This document shows positions 9,864-22,226 of a stretch of 58,262 bases of DNA, one piece after another; position 1 is the stretch's first letter; each line of letters begins with the position of its first letter. The stretch lies in assembly GCA_017482565.1 (NCBI GenBank), contig JAFUMO010000015.1:1-58262 (forward strand), read 5' to 3'. The stretch comes from Bacteroidales bacterium. GTDB taxonomy: Bacteria; Bacteroidota; Bacteroidia; Bacteroidales; UBA932. The position numbers and the translations under genes were made by a program. Below the pieces are notes generated by a model. It was not told the origin of the DNA, made no database searches, and saw only the letters and a list, made by a program, of their open reading frames with translations.

Positions 9864-9911
9864 ATGTACAATTTGCCGAACAATCACCTGCGACTGCTGC
9901 TTTATTGTTGA
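9864..9911 (+). CDS. leuL: Leucine-rich leader peptide
   Basis: A 15-codon ORF, MYNLPNNHLRLLLYC, with five leucines, four of them in the last seven residues. It lies directly before a terminator hairpin and the leuACDB operon. This is the layout of classic ribosome-mediated attenuation: with scarce Leu-tRNA the ribosome stalls on the Leu codons, freeing an antiterminator. GAGAGC (9916-9921), just after the stop codon, can pair with GCTCTC (9970-9975) in the terminator stem. The gene name is by analogy. Confidence 0.75.
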   Translation: MYNLPNNHLRLLLYC

Positions 9912-9965
9912 AATAGAGAGCTTTGCACGTGTATTTGGTCATTTGTAGTGAAAAATATTGCTGAA

Positions 9966-9996
9966 AGGGGCTCTCAAATTGCTGGGAGCCTCTTTT
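9966..9996 (+). terminator. Attenuator terminator before leuA
   Basis: AGGGGCTCTCA (9966-9976) pairs with TGGGAGCCTCT (9983-9993) over a six-base loop (11 pairs, two of them G-U), followed by TTTATTT. The 5' arm is also complementary to 9916-9921, giving the alternative antiterminator fold. Confidence 0.7.
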
Positions 9997-10027
9997 ATTT
10001 GGATTGAACTAACAATTACATACTATT

Positions 10028-16130: not shown

Positions 16131-16173
16131 ATCCCGGGAGATGCGAAAAAAACAGCGGTCCCGGGATTTTTTT
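16131..16173 (+). terminator. Terminator of the hydrogenase gene
   Basis: ATCCCGGGA (16131-16139) pairs perfectly with TCCCGGGAT (16159-16167), followed by a seven-T run. Confidence 0.9.
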
Positions 16174-16186
16174 AGCCCAAAAACAC

Positions 16187-16194
16187 TATATTTG
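16187..16194 (+). promoter_or_regulatory. -7 box of the methionine operon leader
   Basis: TATATTTG matches TAnnTTTG. Transcription should begin near 16199, 191 bp before metY, leaving a long untranslated leader. No -33 TTTG was found. Confidence 0.5.
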
Positions 16195-16235
16195 CACTGA
16201 TGATCACGAACCGTCATATTCATTTCATTTCATCC

Positions 16236-16289
16236 ATGCCTTCTCTGGCTATGGATATGATGGCCATGTTCATGCGAATGCATCGCTAA
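16236..16289 (+). CDS. Methionine-rich leader peptide
   Basis: A 17-codon ORF, MPSLAMDMMAMFMRMHR, with seven methionines. The same frame also opens at ATG 16200 (29 codons, eight Met), but that ATG is at or next to the expected transcription start, so the shorter form is more likely. It lies 100 bp before metY in the leader of a complete methionine-branch operon. A Met-rich ORF here suggests ribosome-mediated attenuation sensing Met-tRNA, parallel to the Leu leader of leuA. I do not recognise a SAM riboswitch fold. Confidence 0.7.
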   Translation: MPSLAMDMMAMFMRMHR

Positions 16290-16364
16290 GATGCTATCTG
16301 ATTCAATTTAGAATTATCTTGGGCAGGAGGCCCGGGGTTCTTCATCCGGCAAGTTTTTCTTTTT
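16288..16364 (+). promoter_or_regulatory. Candidate attenuator structures between the Met leader and metY
   Basis: AAGAT (16288-16292) can pair with ATCTT (16316-16320), with ATTC/GAAT (16301-16304 and 16311-16314) inside. Downstream, GCCCGG (16330-16335) can pair with CCGGC (16346-16350) with one bulged C, followed by TTTTTCTTTTT (16354-16364), resembling an intrinsic terminator. The CTTG at 16318-16321 could join either structure. Stems are short, so the folding model is tentative. Confidence 0.45.
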
Positions 16365-16389
16365 ACATATTACCAGAAACAGATTCATT

Positions 16390-17673
16390 ATGTCACAATA
16401 TAAATTTGACACGCTTCAGGTGCGTGCAGGCCAGCAGCCTGATCCTACAACAGGAGCATGCATAACTCCAATTTACCAGACATCCGCATACGCATTCAGG
16501 GATGTTGAACATGGAAAAAAACTTTTTGAACTGGAAGAGGCCGGGAACATCTATTCCCGTCTGGGCAACCCTACCGCAGATGTCCTTGAGCAGAGGATAG
16601 CAGCATTGGAGAAGGGTACTGCAGCCGTATCGGCTACCTGCGGCATGAGCGCACAGTTCATTGCCATAACTGCCATATGCAATGCCGGAGACAACATAAT
16701 CAGCTCCATGGCCCTCTATGGCGGCACCTTCAACCAGTTCAAGGTTACACTCCCCAAATTGGGAATAAACGTAAAGCTCAACAAATGCAACAACAGGGAG
16801 GAGATAGAGGGCCTGATTGATGAGAATACAAAAGCCATTTATGTTGAGACCATTGCAAACTCAGATTTCTCCGTACCGGACTTTGAAATGCTGGCCGACA
16901 TCTGCCGAAGGCACAAGATCCTGTTCATGGTTGACAACACATTCGGCTGTGCAGGCTATGTTTGCGCCCCAATTGATTTTGGTGCAAACATCATCTGCCA
17001 CTCCGCCACCAAATATATTGGAGGACACGGAAACTCCCTTGCCGGCATTGTTGTGGATTGCGGCAACTTCAACTGGTTTGAAAGCGGCAAATACCCGCAG
17101 CTTACAGAGCCTTGTGCATCATACCATAACATCAAATTTGCGGAGCACTTTGGGAACTGCGCCTTTGCTGCATACCTAAGGTGTGTGGGACTGAGGGATT
17201 TCGGATGCTGCCTCTCCCCTTTCAATGCATTCCTTATACTTACAGGATGTGAAACCCTTTCACTAAGGTGCCAGCGCACCTGTGACAACACCCTTGCCCT
17301 TGCCAAATGGCTTGAGAGCCATCCTATGGTGGAGAGGGTAAACTATCCGGGACTTGAGAGCCACCCTTCGCACCAGAATGCAGTAAAATATCTGCACAAC
17401 GGTTTTGGAGGTGTATTTACAGTAGACCTGAAGGCAAGCAGGGAAGATACAGGCAAGTTTGTGAACAACCTCAAACTGTATACACTCCTCACCAATCTGG
17501 GGGACAATCGCTCGCTCATCTCACACCCCGCCACCACAACCCATGGCCAGCTGAGCGACCGGGAACTTCTGAGCATAGGCATCACACCGGGCACACTCAG
17601 GATAAGTGTAGGAATTGAAGACATTGAGGACCTGATTGATGATTTTGAGCAGGCGCTTGATTCCATAAAATAA
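16390..17673 (+). CDS. metY: O-acetylhomoserine sulfhydrylase (aminocarboxypropyltransferase)
   Basis: A 427-residue PLP enzyme of the Cys/Met metabolism family. It makes homocysteine from O-acetylhomoserine and sulfide. The start is YKFDTLQVRAGQQPDPTTGA, and the PLP-binding Lys is in SATKYIGGHGNS near residue 205. The length and start are those of MetY, not of the shorter cystathionine synthase group. The next gene makes its substrate (metX). The operon metY-metX-thrA-asd covers aspartyl phosphate to homocysteine. Confidence 0.94.
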   Translation: MSQYKFDTLQVRAGQQPDPTTGACITPIYQTSAYAFRDVEHGKKLFELEEAGNIYSRLGNPTADVLEQRIAALEKGTAAVSATCGMSAQFIAITAICNAGDNIISSMALYGGTFNQFKVTLPKLGINVKLNKCNNREEIEGLIDENTKAIYVETIANSDFSVPDFEMLADICRRHKILFMVDNTFGCAGYVCAPIDFGANIICHSATKYIGGHGNSLAGIVVDCGNFNWFESGKYPQLTEPCASYHNIKFAEHFGNCAFAAYLRCVGLRDFGCCLSPFNAFLILTGCETLSLRCQRTCDNTLALAKWLESHPMVERVNYPGLESHPSHQNAVKYLHNGFGGVFTVDLKASREDTGKFVNNLKLYTLLTNLGDNRSLISHPATTTHGQLSDRELLSIGITPGTLRISVGIEDIEDLIDDFEQALDSIK

Positions 17674-17687
17674 TTCCACCTCAAGAT

Positions 17688-18707
17688 ATGGAAAAAAGGA
17701 TATACAGACACAACGGGGCATTTCCGCTTGAATGCGGGGGTTCCATTGAAAACCTTGAGATATGCTACCACATTTCCAGGGAATTCGGAACCGGCACTGA
17801 AAAGGGGAAGAAGGTAATATGGATCACCCACGCCCTCACTGCCAACTCTGACCCTTCGGACTGGTGGGATGTACTTGTTGGGGAAGGGAAGTTTCTGGAC
17901 CCGCGCAAATACACCATTGTATGTGCAAACATATTGGGGTCATGCTACGGCAGCACATCCCCCTCTTCCATAAATCCGGCTACCGGAAGGCCGTATCTGC
18001 TGGATTTCCCCAAGACCACAGTAAGGGATGTGGCAATCTGCCACAACATCCTTATGGAGCATCTTGGTATAGGACAGATTGACCTCCTCACAGGCGGCTC
18101 GGTAGGCGGTTTCCAGGCATTGGAATGGAGCATCATGTTTCCACGCAAGATAAAGAACCTTGTGCTCCTCGCATGCAACTGCCGCTTCACCCCTTGGGGA
18201 AGCGCCTTCAACGAATCCATGAGGATGGCTCTCTACGCAGACCCCACCTTTGCCAGCGGGGAAGGGGGCAAGGCAGGACTTGCTGCTGCAAGGTCAATTG
18301 CCCTTATCTCATACAGGAGCTTTGAGGGGTACAATACCACCCAGTTTGAGCAGGATGAAGACTGCACATTTCCACAGAGGGCCGGATCATACCAGCGGTA
18401 CCAGGGAAAGAAGCTCGTTGACAGGTTTGACGCCTACTCATACCTGAATATGCTCAACCTCACCGACAGCCACAATGTAGGGCGCCACAGGGGCGGAGTT
18501 GAAAAGGCACTGGGAAGCATAAAGGCCAATACTGTATGTGTGGGAATAGATTCAGACGGCCTGTTCCCGGTTGCTGAACAGAAGTTCATGGCCCGGCACA
18601 TTCCTGGAGCCAGATACAGGGAGATAACATCCGCATTCGGGCACGACGGTTTCCTCCTTGAATGGGAACAGATAAAGGAAGTAATTGAGAATGAAAAATT
18701 GATATAA
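17688..18707 (+). CDS. metX: Homoserine O-acetyltransferase
   Basis: A 339-residue alpha/beta-hydrolase-fold enzyme that acetylates homoserine with acetyl-CoA. The nucleophile Ser is in LTGGSVGGFQALEW (about residue 135). The His of the triad is in GHDGFLLEW near the C-terminus, and the Asp is in the preceding DSDGLFPV. HALTAN near residue 50 is the usual oxyanion region. Located 14 bp after metY. Confidence 0.94.
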   Translation: MEKRIYRHNGAFPLECGGSIENLEICYHISREFGTGTEKGKKVIWITHALTANSDPSDWWDVLVGEGKFLDPRKYTIVCANILGSCYGSTSPSSINPATGRPYLLDFPKTTVRDVAICHNILMEHLGIGQIDLLTGGSVGGFQALEWSIMFPRKIKNLVLLACNCRFTPWGSAFNESMRMALYADPTFASGEGGKAGLAAARSIALISYRSFEGYNTTQFEQDEDCTFPQRAGSYQRYQGKKLVDRFDAYSYLNMLNLTDSHNVGRHRGGVEKALGSIKANTVCVGIDSDGLFPVAEQKFMARHIPGARYREITSAFGHDGFLLEWEQIKEVIENEKLI

Positions 18708-18718
18708 ACCAACCAGCT

Positions 18719-21187
18719 ATGCAAGTACTTAAATTCGGAGGCAGCTCGGTTGCCAACGCTGCAAATATAAACAAGGTAATTGCCATTGTAAAGAATGCCC
18801 TTGCAAACGACCGCACAGTTGTTGTTTCATCGGCAATAAGCGGGGCCACAGATGCCCTGATACTTATTGGAAAGACCGCCAAGACCGGTGATGAAAGATA
18901 TCTGGAACTCATAGCAGAACTCCAGCAGAGACACCTGCAGATTATTGGGGAACTTATCCCTCAGGAGGAATCCGAGACAATAAAGGAGACCTGCAACAGC
19001 CTCTTCAACAAGCTCCGGGAGATATGCAAGGGGGTATATCTGCTGAAGGAGCTTACTGAACTTAGCCAGGACCACATTGTAAGTTTTGGAGAGATACTCT
19101 CCACAAACATAATCAGCGCAAAGCTTAAATCCCTCAACATCAGCCACCAGTGGAAGGATTCCAGAGAGCTGATAAAGACAGAGCTGCAGGCAGGGAAAAA
19201 TGCCGTGATTGACAACCTCACCACTTCCGGCATCAGTGAATATTTTGCCAATGACACACACAAGCTCTACATCATGCCTGGCTTCATTGCATCTGACCTG
19301 GCAGGACGCACAACCACATTGGGACGCGGCGGCTCTGACTACACTGCATCTATAATTGCGGTGGGAACACAGGCCCGCAGGCTTGAGATATGGACTGATG
19401 TATGCGGAATGATGACAGCAGACCCACGCATAGTACCGGATGCCCGCCCTATCAGGAACATCTCCTACAAGGAGGCCCTTGAGCTCTCCCACTTCGGGGC
19501 AAAAGTGGTATATCCGCCTACAATACAGCCTGTTGTAAAGCAGGGTATTCCAATTTATGTAAAGAACACCTTTGCTCCCGACGATTTTGGCACCCTCATT
19601 GAACGCAACCCGCCTGAGGGACAGGATAAGATAAGGGGAATCTCAAGTTCCAACAAGATAGCCCTCCTCTCAATGGAAGGGAGCGGCATGGTTGGAATCC
19701 CGGGCTACTCCAGCAAGCTGTTTGATGTCCTGAGCAAGAACAATGTGAACATCATCCTCATCACCCAGGCATCATCCGTGCACACAATGTGCATTGCAAT
19801 TGCAGAAGAGGATGCAGACAAGGCAAAGAAGGCCGCAGACGAGCTGTTCGCCTACGAGATCTCCTTGGGCAAGGTGGATCCGCTCCGGGTAGAGAAAGGG
19901 TTTTCAATCATCTCCCTTGTTGGTGATGACATGAAGAACCAGAGCGGTGCCAGCGGAAAGATGTTTGATGCACTTGGGCGTGAAGGGATAAACATCAGGG
20001 CCATTGCCCAAGGCTCATCAGAGAAGAATGTATCCGCCGTACTCCACACAGAGGATGTGAACGATGCCATCAGGGCCATCCACGCGGAGTTCTTCTCCAC
20101 ATCATCCAACAGGGTAAACCTCTTCATTGCAGGATACGGCACGGTTTCAAAGGCACTTGTATCCATCATCTACGCTCAGAAGGATTCCATTGAGGCACGC
20201 CTTGGCAAGGAACTGGTGATATGCGGAATCTGCAACAGCAGGAACTACATCATCAACCGCAACGGCATAAGGGAAGGATTCAACCTTCAGGATGGTGAGA
20301 AGAATACGGACAACAGGTATGTAAGTGAGATCTGCCGCTTCCAGCTTAGCAACTCCATATTTGTTGACTGCACAGCCAACAGGAACATAGCCTCATTGTA
20401 CGTAGACCTGTTCAGGCACAAGTTCTCGGTTGTAACCTGCAACAAGATTGCAAACTCCCTCTCATATGAATCCTACAGGGAGCTCTTTGCAACAGCAAGG
20501 CAGGAGAAGGTGAAATACAGGTATGAGACCACAGTATGCGCCGCTCTCCCTGTTCTGGAAACATTGCTCCAGCTGCTCAACTGCGGGGACACCATAAGGA
20601 AAATTGAGGGGATATTGTCGGGAACACTGAACTTCCTCTTCAGCAGCTACAATGGAGAAAAATCCTTTGCCACACTGGTAAGGGATGCTGCACAGATGGG
20701 CTATGCGGAGCCTGACCCAAGGCTCGATCTGGCCGGCACGGATGTCTTCCGCAAATTCCTTATCTCTTCACGGCAGGGAGGCTTCCCTATTGAGAGCAGC
20801 GATGTGAACTTTGAGGGATTCATTCCTGAGGATATAATGAACTCCGGGGAGAGCAACTTCCCTGCCTATGCGGAAGAGTTCTACAGCAGGCTGGAGGCCT
20901 ATGAGCCGCAGCTGAAGGCCAGATATGCAGAGGCTGCCGCCAAAGGTGAGAAGCTCCGCTTCATCGCATCACTTGACGCCACAAAACCTGGTGCAGAAGG
21001 CAAGCCGCAGTGCACAATCAGCCTAAGGAGCATTGGGAAAGAGCATCCTTTCTACACCCTGGAGGGGACAGACAATGCTGTAATCATTGAATCCGGATAC
21101 TACCCTAACGCAATAGTGATCAAAGGTGCCGGTGCTGGTGCCAGACAAACTGCAGGAGGGGTATTGAATGATATTTTAAGTCTATAA
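18719..21187 (+). CDS. thrA: Bifunctional aspartokinase / homoserine dehydrogenase
   Basis: An 822-residue fusion. Residues 1-~290 are aspartokinase (VLKFGGSSVANAAN at the start, FGEILSTNI, TLGRGGSDYTAS). About 310-460 are two ACT domains (SMEGSGMVGIPG and ISLVGDDMKN), which bind the allosteric amino acid. The rest is homoserine dehydrogenase (LFIAGYGTVSKAL, DCTANRNIAS, GTLNFLFSS). It supplies aspartyl phosphate and homoserine. Its place in a Met operon suggests it is the methionine-linked isoenzyme; whether threonine or methionine inhibits it cannot be read from sequence. Confidence 0.95.
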   Translation: MQVLKFGGSSVANAANINKVIAIVKNALANDRTVVVSSAISGATDALILIGKTAKTGDERYLELIAELQQRHLQIIGELIPQEESETIKETCNSLFNKLREICKGVYLLKELTELSQDHIVSFGEILSTNIISAKLKSLNISHQWKDSRELIKTELQAGKNAVIDNLTTSGISEYFANDTHKLYIMPGFIASDLAGRTTTLGRGGSDYTASIIAVGTQARRLEIWTDVCGMMTADPRIVPDARPIRNISYKEALELSHFGAKVVYPPTIQPVVKQGIPIYVKNTFAPDDFGTLIERNPPEGQDKIRGISSSNKIALLSMEGSGMVGIPGYSSKLFDVLSKNNVNIILITQASSVHTMCIAIAEEDADKAKKAADELFAYEISLGKVDPLRVEKGFSIISLVGDDMKNQSGASGKMFDALGREGINIRAIAQGSSEKNVSAVLHTEDVNDAIRAIHAEFFSTSSNRVNLFIAGYGTVSKALVSIIYAQKDSIEARLGKELVICGICNSRNYIINRNGIREGFNLQDGEKNTDNRYVSEICRFQLSNSIFVDCTANRNIASLYVDLFRHKFSVVTCNKIANSLSYESYRELFATARQEKVKYRYETTVCAALPVLETLLQLLNCGDTIRKIEGILSGTLNFLFSSYNGEKSFATLVRDAAQMGYAEPDPRLDLAGTDVFRKFLISSRQGGFPIESSDVNFEGFIPEDIMNSGESNFPAYAEEFYSRLEAYEPQLKARYAEAAAKGEKLRFIASLDATKPGAEGKPQCTISLRSIGKEHPFYTLEGTDNAVIIESGYYPNAIVIKGAGAGARQTAGGVLNDILSL

Positions 21188-21191
21188 AGAT

Positions 21192-22226
21192 ATGAAAGTA
21201 GCAGTAGTAGGAGCCACCGGACTGGTTGGCAGAAACATGTTGAAGGTGCTTGAGGAGAGGAATTTCCCTGTAAGTGAGCTGATTCCTGTAGCATCTGAAA
21301 AATCGTCGGGAAGCAGTATCCCATTCAAGGGGAAGGAATATATTGTATGTACCCCCCAGCAGGCAATTGAAAAGGGCCCCCAGATTGCCCTCTTCTCAGC
21401 AGGAAGCGGGGTATCCAAGGAGTGGGCGCCAAAATTTGCAGAGGCAGGGTGCTACGTGATTGACAACTCCGCCTGCTGGAGGATGGACCCTACAAAGAAG
21501 CTTGTAATCCCTGAAATAAACGGGGATGTGATTGAAAAGGGGGACTATATCATTGCAAACCCCAACTGTTCAACCATACAGATGCTTGTGGCAATTGCAG
21601 ACCTGCACAAGAGGTTTACAATAAGGAGGATTGTGGTTTCAACCTACCAGTGCATAACAGGTACCGGCAAGAAGGCCGTTGACCAGATGAGTGCCGAAAG
21701 GGATGGCAGGGAGCCCGATGTGAAGGCCTACCCTTACAGGATTGACCTGAACCTCCTCCCACACATTGACATCTTCCTGGAGAACGGATATACCAAGGAG
21801 GAGATGAAGATGGTGAACGAAACCCACAAGATCATGAGGGACGAAAGCATAAGGGTATCCCCTACCACCGTAAGGGTTCCGGTACTCGGAGGCCATGCGG
21901 AATCCATAAACCTTGAGTTTGCCAGGCCGTTTGAAATGGAGGAGATCTTCCAGACTCTCAGGGGTACGGCCGGTGTTGTAGTACAGGATGCCGTTGCACT
22001 TGAGGACGGAGGGCAGCCTTCTGCCATAGGTTCAATGGAGAACCTCCCATATCCTATGCCGCTTTTCACCAAGGACAGGGACGAGGTATTTGTAGGCAGA
22101 GTGAGGAGAGACCCGTCCGTAGAGAACGGCATAAACCTCTGGTGCGTTGCAGATAACCTGCGGAAAGGGGCAGCCACCAACACGGTGCAGATAGCTGAAT
22201 TATTGATTGAAAAGGGGTTGGTATAA
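21192..22226 (+). CDS. asd: Aspartate-semialdehyde dehydrogenase
   Basis: A 344-residue NADPH-dependent enzyme reducing aspartyl phosphate to the semialdehyde. The start KVAVVGATGLVGRNML is the Rossmann motif, and the catalytic Cys is in IIANPNCSTIQM near residue 127. GGHAESINLEF near 230 holds the active-site His. It begins 4 bp after thrA. Its final codons form part of the terminator hairpin that ends the operon. Confidence 0.95.
   Translation: MKVAVVGATGLVGRNMLKVLEERNFPVSELIPVASEKSSGSSIPFKGKEYIVCTPQQAIEKGPQIALFSAGSGVSKEWAPKFAEAGCYVIDNSACWRMDPTKKLVIPEINGDVIEKGDYIIANPNCSTIQMLVAIADLHKRFTIRRIVVSTYQCITGTGKKAVDQMSAERDGREPDVKAYPYRIDLNLLPHIDIFLENGYTKEEMKMVNETHKIMRDESIRVSPTTVRVPVLGGHAESINLEFARPFEMEEIFQTLRGTAGVVVQDAVALEDGGQPSAIGSMENLPYPMPLFTKDRDEVFVGRVRRDPSVENGINLWCVADNLRKGAATNTVQIAELLIEKGLV

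What the first reader, a model, noticed from the sequence alone, without database searches (positions are those of the whole stretch)
16187..16389. Methionine-rich leader peptide before a complete Met operon
A 17-codon ORF with seven Met codons lies in a ~190-bp leader before metY-metX-thrA-asd, followed by competing hairpins and a T-run. Met operons are usually controlled by SAM riboswitches, T-boxes or repressors; attenuation through Met-tRNA with a Met-rich leader would be unusual. The parallel with the Leu leader in the same window supports a real mechanism.
Basis: partly seen in the sequence, partly recalled or inferred. Interest (0 to 1): 0.8.

Follow-up and report, generated by a model that had tools for sequence, protein, structure and literature searches.

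The report
Methionine-codon leader peptide before Met operon
In front of a methionine-making operon lies a tiny gene whose end is packed with methionine codons, and relatives keep those codons in the same reading frame, which suggests that the cell senses methionine shortage through stalled ribosomes, in many cousins together with a riboswitch that senses SAM.

Summary
Nothing in the window reaches an Rfam gathering score; no SAM-I was found in the genome. The Met codons are conserved. In the same family a near-invariant end (MRMHR*, hairpin over the stop codon) precedes metY or metX in 28 of 30 pattern hits; ATG triplets before it fall 77:3:2 by frame. Elsewhere in the order, in 55 of 88 SAM-I loci a uORF begins 7-16 nt after the aptamer; 46 of the 55 have Met in the last ten codons, ATG there falls 96:3:3 by frame, in 26 families. 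Met-tRNA sensing is thus well supported by comparison. The output step is not settled: terminator-like sites occur in only 5 of 36 leaders of the window's family; the window's own is weak and not found in its 3 nearest named relatives. Ten searches of an open-access library listed no Met leader peptide. Best label: a new variant of ribosome-mediated attenuation, inferred from sequence only.

The parts
16131..16167 (+). intrinsic terminator-like hairpin (9-bp ATCCCGGGA/TCCCGGGAT) followed by a T-run; separates the leader from the upstream [FeFe] hydrogenase gene
   Evidence: sequence; upstream gene named by NCBIfam TIGR04105
16187..16194 (+). promoter-like box TATATTTG (Bacteroidetes -7 type TAnnTTTG, type recalled), 5 nt before the leader start codon
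   Evidence: TAnnTTTG lies 0-60 nt before an in-frame start in 32 of 36 family leaders (nearest of several possible starts taken; box density 0.0025 per nt forward, 0.0011 reverse)
16200..16289 (+). leader ORF MITNRHIHFISSMPSLAMDMMAMFMRMHR*, 29 codons, 8 Met
   Evidence: shuffle test; similar leaders in L002, L003, L018 and in the family
16272..16294 (+). near-invariant core ATGCGAATGCATCGCTAAGATGC (codes MRMHR*)
   Evidence: pattern search, gene behind each hit, alignment of 13
16280..16294 (+). hairpin H1 GCATC-GCTAA-GATGC, stop codon in the loop
   Evidence: hairpin peak near the stop codon
16317..16337 (+). hairpin H2 TCTTGGGC-AGGAG-GCCCGGGG; similar hairpins in L002, L003 and genera g10 and g12
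16332..16364 (+). weak terminator-like hairpin CCGGGGTTCTTCATCCGG (16332-16349), CAAG, then T-run TTTTTCTTTTT; shares bases with H2, so the two exclude each other
   Evidence: not found in L002, L003, L018
16390..17673 (+). metY, O-acetylhomoserine sulfhydrylase family
   Evidence: TIGR01326 above cut-off
17688..18707 (+). metX-like homoserine O-acyltransferase
   Evidence: TIGR01392 best hit, below its cut-off
18719..21187 (+). thrA, bifunctional aspartokinase/homoserine dehydrogenase
   Evidence: NF006959 above cut-off
21192..22226 (+). asd, aspartate-semialdehyde dehydrogenase
   Evidence: TIGR01296 above cut-off

Best explanation
A cis-acting, ribosome-mediated regulator that reads the supply of methionyl-tRNA. 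Transcription starts a few bases before the leader start codon, so the leader ORF is translated at once from a nearly leaderless 5' end (inferred). When Met-tRNA is plentiful the ribosome runs through the Met codons to the stop codon and leaves; H1 and the structures behind it then form and the transcript ends early, or downstream expression is kept low. When Met-tRNA is scarce the ribosome stalls on the Met cluster next to H1, H1 cannot form, and the metY-metX-thrA-asd operon is expressed. Shown here: the ORF; in-frame conservation of Met codons in relatives; the predicted hairpin over the stop codon; the link to Met operons whether metY or metX comes first; no SAM-I found in this genome. Inferred: translation, stalling, the direction of the response and the output step. 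Some relatives have what looks like intrinsic termination. For the window's own type the output may be Rho-dependent termination or a weak intrinsic terminator that competes with H2. In other families of the order a similar leader stands behind a SAM-I aptamer, which probably controls whether the leader is translated at all.
For: Frame-specific Met codons: ATG falls 77:3:2 before the family core (36 leaders) and 96:3:3 in the last ten codons of 55 SAM-I uORFs, against 13:12:6 earlier in the same ORFs. 31 of 71 family loci reach p<=0.01 on the sense strand, 0 of 71 on the antisense. Of 30 pattern hits for the core, 19 lie before metY and 9 before metX; one is the same leader at a contig end, one looks like chance; the reversed control pattern gave 0. 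Hairpins peak within 15 nt of the stop codon and are stronger than in synonymous resamples (1 of 40 resampled sets as strong for the family, 0 of 40 for the SAM-I set). Five loci of genus g19 and three Alistipes loci, picked by eye, show textbook attenuators: a leader with Met and Cys codons plus a strong terminator, 8 of 8. No Rfam element in the window.
Against: No expression, ribosome or termination data. 40 of 71 family loci do not reach p<=0.01; some of these are operon-internal metY genes, and in some the Met codons lie earlier in the ORF. Only 5 of 36 family leaders (1.3 expected) and 0 of 3 nearest named relatives have a terminator-like site, and T content after the strongest downstream hairpin is at background (0.33 against 0.31, 37 leaders). 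The arms of H1 do not vary in the 13-sequence alignment, so covariation does not prove its pairing there. Placing a ribosome in the fold shows no clean switch. The core is conserved as DNA, rare CGA codon included, which pure Met counting does not require. The family leaders were chosen for Met content before the 77:3:2 count, which inflates the in-frame number. A cruder scan of 96 order loci found Met-dense ORFs on the sense strand in 17 and on the antisense strand in 9, a weak contrast.
Confidence: 0.75

Rival explanations
1. A classic trp/leu-type attenuator in the window itself: H2 (16317-16337) is the antiterminator and CCGGGG...CCGG plus T-run (16332-16364) the intrinsic terminator; stalling at Met codons decides between them.
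For: The two hairpins share bases and exclude each other; the terminator scan found 1 site where 0.2 are expected; genus relatives have terminator-like sites before leuA in 5 of 8 (one of them, L340, may belong to the gene upstream), and g19 loci have them in Met leaders.
Against: The terminator stem is 5 pairs with an 8-nt loop and is not found in L002, L003 and L018, although the metY protein of L002 is 97% identical. The predicted fold keeps H2 with the ribosome absent, at the stop codon or at the Met codons.
Confidence: 0.3
2. Rho-dependent version: a ribosome stalled at or near the end of the leader covers RNA next to the stop codon that Rho would use after the ribosome leaves (tnaC-like geometry, recalled, but triggered by scarcity).
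For: Few intrinsic terminators; RNA after the leader has more C than G, 0.239 to 0.158 from 16 to 76 nt after the stop.
Against: The bias is mild (0.211 to 0.201 inside the leader ORFs; 0.212 to 0.175 after the SAM-I uORFs), strong hairpins lie in the same stretch, and Rho was not tested.
Confidence: 0.35
3. The conserved core is a structured RNA that binds a ligand or protein; the Met codons are a by-product of its sequence.
For: The core is nearly invariant as DNA, including a rare CGA codon (30 of 32 Arg codons between two Mets), and in genus g10 the stop codon has moved while the hairpin stayed.
Against: Met codons upstream of the core vary in number and place but stay in frame (77:3:2). 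SAM-I uORFs have Met enrichment with quite different hairpin sequences. No Rfam match.
Confidence: 0.12
4. A short ORF by chance, or a small functional peptide, with no regulatory role.
For: No translation data for the window.
Against: 0 of 300 shuffles reach the observed Met count; among family leaders mainly the end of the peptide is alike, and the core sits before Met genes.
Confidence: 0.03

Closest known systems
Ribosome-mediated transcription attenuators of amino-acid operons (trp, his, leu, thr, phe leaders; recalled)
   Same: Short leader ORF rich in codons of the pathway's end product, hairpins at and after its end, biosynthetic operon directly downstream. The Leu leader in this window looks like one.
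   Different: The codon is Met, for which I recall no described leader, and most family members lack a clear intrinsic terminator.
uORFC-8-2, Cys leader before cysS in Rhodobacterales (PMC8632094, passages seen)
   Same: Codon-specific uORF with hairpins, found by comparative genomics.
   Different: Cys, alpha-proteobacteria, with a stem that fits an intrinsic terminator.
SAM-I riboswitch (Rfam RF00162)
   Same: Stands before the same genes in other genomes of the order; there an ORF often starts 7-16 nt after the aptamer.
   Different: No match in the window and none found in this genome.
B12 riboswitch plus uORF of M. tuberculosis metE/ppe2 (PMC11260477, abstract and outline seen)
   Same: A riboswitch linked to a translated uORF before a gene.
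   Different: B12, not SAM; the abstract mentions no codon-specific stalling.
S. meliloti metA SAM-II element (PMC9373788, abstract and outline seen)
   Same: A SAM riboswitch acting on translation, with an earlier start codon upstream of the one used.
   Different: SAM-II; the abstract mentions no Met-codon leader peptide.

Membership tests
Ribosome-mediated transcription attenuator | Short ORF before the operon with a cluster of codons for the pathway's amino acid | tested here: met
Ribosome-mediated transcription attenuator | Regulatory codons conserved in frame among relatives | tested here: met
   77:3:2 in 36 family leaders, 96:3:3 in 55 SAM-I uORFs
Ribosome-mediated transcription attenuator | Intrinsic terminator between leader and first gene | tested here: inconclusive
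   Weak site in the window; 5 of 36 family leaders, 0 of 3 nearest named kin, 8 of 8 in g19 and Alistipes loci picked by eye
Ribosome-mediated transcription attenuator | Mutually exclusive antiterminator set by ribosome position | tested here: inconclusive
   H2 and the terminator share bases in the window; simple folding does not switch them with ribosome position
Ribosome-mediated transcription attenuator | Leader is translated and the response follows charged-tRNA supply | not testable with these tools
   Needs reporter, Met limitation and ribosome profiling
SAM-I riboswitch (RF00162) | Aptamer matches the covariance model | tested here: not met
   No match in the window at gathering score; none found in this genome with the faster filters
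Other SAM riboswitches and T-boxes in Rfam | Match at gathering score | tested here: not met
   0 matches of 4227 families in 58262 bases

The most novel reading that the evidence does not exclude
In many families of this order, Met genes are run by a two-input RNA device: a SAM-I aptamer decides whether a leader ORF that starts about 12 nt after it is translated, and the Met codons at the end of that ORF read Met-tRNA. An untranslated leader (SAM high) and a fully translated leader (Met high) would both be OFF; only a stalled ribosome, which needs low SAM and low Met-tRNA, is ON. The window's family has mostly lost the aptamer, moved the promoter up to the leader and kept the Met sensor. A few leaders use Cys codons instead.
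Probability: 0.55. Interest if true: 0.85.

Novelty: new variant of a known kind. Interest (0 to 1): 0.76.

Why it matters
Methionine is the textbook case of control by SAM riboswitches, T-boxes or repressors (recalled). A Met-codon leader would add Met-tRNA attenuation to that list, and the tandem with SAM-I would be a natural riboswitch-plus-ribosome logic gate, here seen at 46 loci in 26 families. It also suggests a concrete target for SAM-I in this group, the start codon 7-16 nt downstream, instead of the usual terminator, and offers a test bed for how sensors are gained and lost in front of one operon.

Tried and rejected
Rfam match in the window: none at gathering score. SAM-I in the own genome: none found. 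Of 19 loci scanned only L053 has SAM-I. The core motif in the order: 4 of 393 genomes, two of them family members; the other two (L106, L107, one mismatch each) were not followed up. First crude scan of order metY leaders: of 109 loci, 12 gave no gene start and one (L165) was too short; of the 96 scored, 17 had a Met-dense ORF (3 or more Met in 12 codons) on the sense strand and 9 on the antisense, so this scan alone would not have convinced. Phylum-level SAM-I: the 30 loci L307-L336 show no Met-ended uORF from the first ATG 4 nt or more downstream (by eye), but 23 of the 30 come from two genera of one family; of 20 further loci from the same class one does (L358..ITRMR*). Only these 50 places were read, of 247 genomes with SAM-I. 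Consensus folding of 13 leaders: two pairs with changes on both sides, both outside H1. Ribosome-position folding did not show a clean switch. The C-over-G test for Rho is only suggestive. Homology between the SAM-I uORFs and the family leaders rests on the shared string ATGCGAATGC (30 of 36 and 5 of 46) and is not proven. In one search L076 was scored negative although one search shows a leader there, because it lies more than 300 nt upstream; L305 (no start) and L051 (short) were not scored, L074 was not given. L296 was dropped from the family leaders before (composition). L129's uORF was counted from its first ATG and so as a miss. Not all g19 loci have a Met leader: L068 and L293 show none.

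Literature: ten searches of an open-access library; no listed title or abstract describes a Met leader peptide or a SAM-I/Met-leader tandem. Listings were capped, and subscription papers and preprints are not covered.

Full report
WHAT IS THERE. Upstream of metY-metX-thrA-asd (names by NCBIfam; metX below its cut-off) the window holds, in order: a terminator-like hairpin after an [FeFe] hydrogenase gene (16131-16167), a TATATTTG promoter-like box (16187-16194), a 29-codon ORF (16200-16289) reading MITNRHIHFISSMPSLAMDMMAMFMRMHR*, a small hairpin over its stop codon (H1, 16280-16294), a stronger hairpin (H2, 16317-16337), a weak terminator-like hairpin with T-run (16332-16364), and the metY start at 16390. 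None of 300 shuffles of the upstream 300 nt gave as many Met in the last 12 codons of an ORF. No Rfam family reaches its gathering score in the window.

CLOSE RELATIVES. The three nearest named loci (metY identity 97, 93 and 85%, the last over 129 residues only; Bacteroidales MAGs from caecum samples) all keep a leader ending MRMHR*. Among the 24 named loci read, three uncultured-Alistipes loci (L008, L009, L014) have another leader rich in Met and Cys, followed by a strong terminator; in the other 18 I saw none.

THE FAMILY. In 149 genomes of the same family, 104 have a MetY at E<=1e-60. A DNA pattern for the leader end, one mismatch allowed, hit 30 places in 28 genomes and 8 of 25 genera, with 0 hits for the reversed control. 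Of the 30 places 19 lie 68-227 nt before metY and 9 lie 83-395 nt before metX; one (L104) is the same leader at a contig end and one (L105) has no Met gene behind it and looks like chance. So the element follows the Met operon, not one gene. Without using the pattern, 31 of 71 scored upstream regions reach p<=0.01 for a Met-rich ORF end and 0 of 71 antisense controls do, in 7 of 19 genera. The nine metX-first loci among these 71 had been found through the pattern. The misses include operon-internal metY genes, genus g19, whose Met and Cys codons lie earlier in the ORF, and one leader beyond the 300 nt (L076). The window genome's own second metY homologue shows no such leader (L074). In the 36 leaders kept, ATG triplets in the 45 nt before the conserved core fall 77:3:2 by frame; the leaders had been picked for Met content, so the in-frame number is inflated, but the scarcity in the other frames is not explained by that.

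BEYOND THE FAMILY: A TANDEM WITH SAM-I. Of 294 order genomes, 142 have MetY at E<=1e-95. I took 109 loci: 29 that came with that search and 80 fetched by place (one of the 80, L216, is a family genome). A crude Met-density scan of the 96 that could be scored was weak, 17 sense against 9 antisense. Of 80 of the 109 given to Rfam, 26 carry SAM-I, and in 23 of the 26 the aptamer is followed by an ORF with Met near its end (by eye). A direct search for SAM-I in 247 order genomes found it in 76. I analysed 88 loci: 87 of the 88 places listed there (the one left out is below the cut-off) and one from the metY survey. In 55 the first ATG lies 7-16 nt after the aptamer and opens an ORF of 12-60 codons; in 6 it opens a main gene directly (5 look like metH, 1 is metY); 27 have neither. 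Of the 55 uORFs, 46 have Met in the last ten codons, in 26 families; 34 have two or more, in 22 families. ATG there falls 96:3:3 by frame, against 13:12:6 earlier in the same ORFs. Compared with the earlier codons Met is about 15-fold, Arg 3.4-fold and Cys 2.5-fold enriched, and 0 of 5000 within-peptide shuffles reach 96 Met (mean 37). Genes behind are metY, metX and thrA and, by eye, metH, aspartokinase and homocysteine-biosynthesis genes; Pfam confirms one metH-like and one HcyBio fragment, the aspartokinase fragment stays below its cut-off. Of the nine uORFs without Met near the end, four precede metH-like genes, two end in Cys runs (L248, L260, both in one genome), and one (L129) has a second start that does reach Met codons.

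STRUCTURE. Local hairpins peak within 15 nt of the stop codon and again about 30 nt (family) or 45 nt (SAM-I set) downstream. They are stronger than after synonymous resampling of the last 12 codons (family 1 of 40, SAM-I set 0 of 40 resampled sets as strong), so the hairpin is not just a by-product of the peptide. Stem sequences differ widely in the SAM-I set; in the family the arms of H1 do not vary in the 13 sequences aligned. In genus g10 the stop codon has moved while the hairpin stayed. The Arg codon between two Met codons in the family is CGA in 30 of 32 cases although CGA is 2 of 166 Arg codons in eight genes of the window; I have no tested explanation.

OUTPUT. A hairpin-plus-T-run terminator was found in 5 of 36 family leaders (1.3 expected), 0 of 3 nearest named kin, 8 of 46 SAM-I leaders (2.2 expected), but in 8 of 8 g19 and Alistipes leaders (picked by eye) and before leuA in 5 of 8 genus loci (L340's may belong to the gene upstream). 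At least 4 of those 8 leuA loci have a Leu-rich leader ORF. T content after the strongest hairpin is at background (0.33 against 0.31 in 37 family leaders, 0.33 against 0.32 in 46 SAM-I leaders). So the lineage can build classic attenuators and seems to do so for Leu, but the window's type of Met leader mostly ends in something else, perhaps Rho (rivals). In the window itself a weak intrinsic terminator exists and overlaps H2.

HOW IT PROBABLY WORKS. See best explanation. In the SAM-I families the common spacing between aptamer and start codon, also seen where the next ORF is a main gene (10-15 nt), suggests that SAM acts on translation of whatever starts there. Combined with the Met codons this makes a gate in which plenty of either SAM or Met-tRNA shuts the genes. 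The window's family would be the aptamer-free form; one family genus (g6, L053) still has SAM-I followed by an ORF ending GRMRA*. All of this is comparative inference.

LITERATURE. Ten searches of the open-access library (named in Tried and rejected) listed no Met leader peptide and no SAM-I/Met-leader tandem. Of single papers I saw passages of PMC7366714 (B. thetaiotaomicron: long 5' UTRs with sORFs reminiscent of leader peptides), PMC2965389, PMC8632094, PMC4833913 and PMC12121620, and the abstract and outline of PMC9373788 and PMC11260477. That Met operons are usually run by SAM riboswitches, T-boxes or repressors is recalled.

Noticed in passing
window 9864-10000: Leu leader MYNLPNNHLRLLLYC* before leuA with a strong intrinsic terminator (GGGGCTCTC..GGGAGCC plus T-run); at least 4 of 8 genus loci, this one included, have a Leu-rich leader ORF.
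   Followed up: partly
L248, L260 (genome G402): SAM-I aptamer followed by uORFs ending in Cys runs (..LCCCCCCC*..SFCCCFCCC*), as if the same device sensed cysteine; the gene after L248 is not identified.
   Followed up: partly
L228, L239, L246, L255, L263, L244: SAM-I aptamers 10-15 nt before the start codon of metH-like genes (five, by eye) or metY (one), with no uORF: looks like direct translational control.
   Followed up: partly
window 16275-16277 and family leaders: The rare Arg codon CGA sits between two Met codons in 30 of 32 family cases, against 2 of 166 Arg codons in eight window genes.
   Followed up: partly
L043, L045, L047, L048, L058 (genus g19); L008, L009, L014: Leaders with Met and Cys codons followed by strong CCGG-containing terminators, a different design before the same gene.
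   Followed up: partly
L053 (genus g6 of the same family): SAM-I (63.9 bits) followed by a uORF ending GRMRA*, a possible remnant of an ancestral tandem in the window's family.
   Followed up: partly
L075 and G003:C1:224499-225769: In genome G003 the MetY match comes as two separate pieces behind an intact-looking leader.
   Followed up: no
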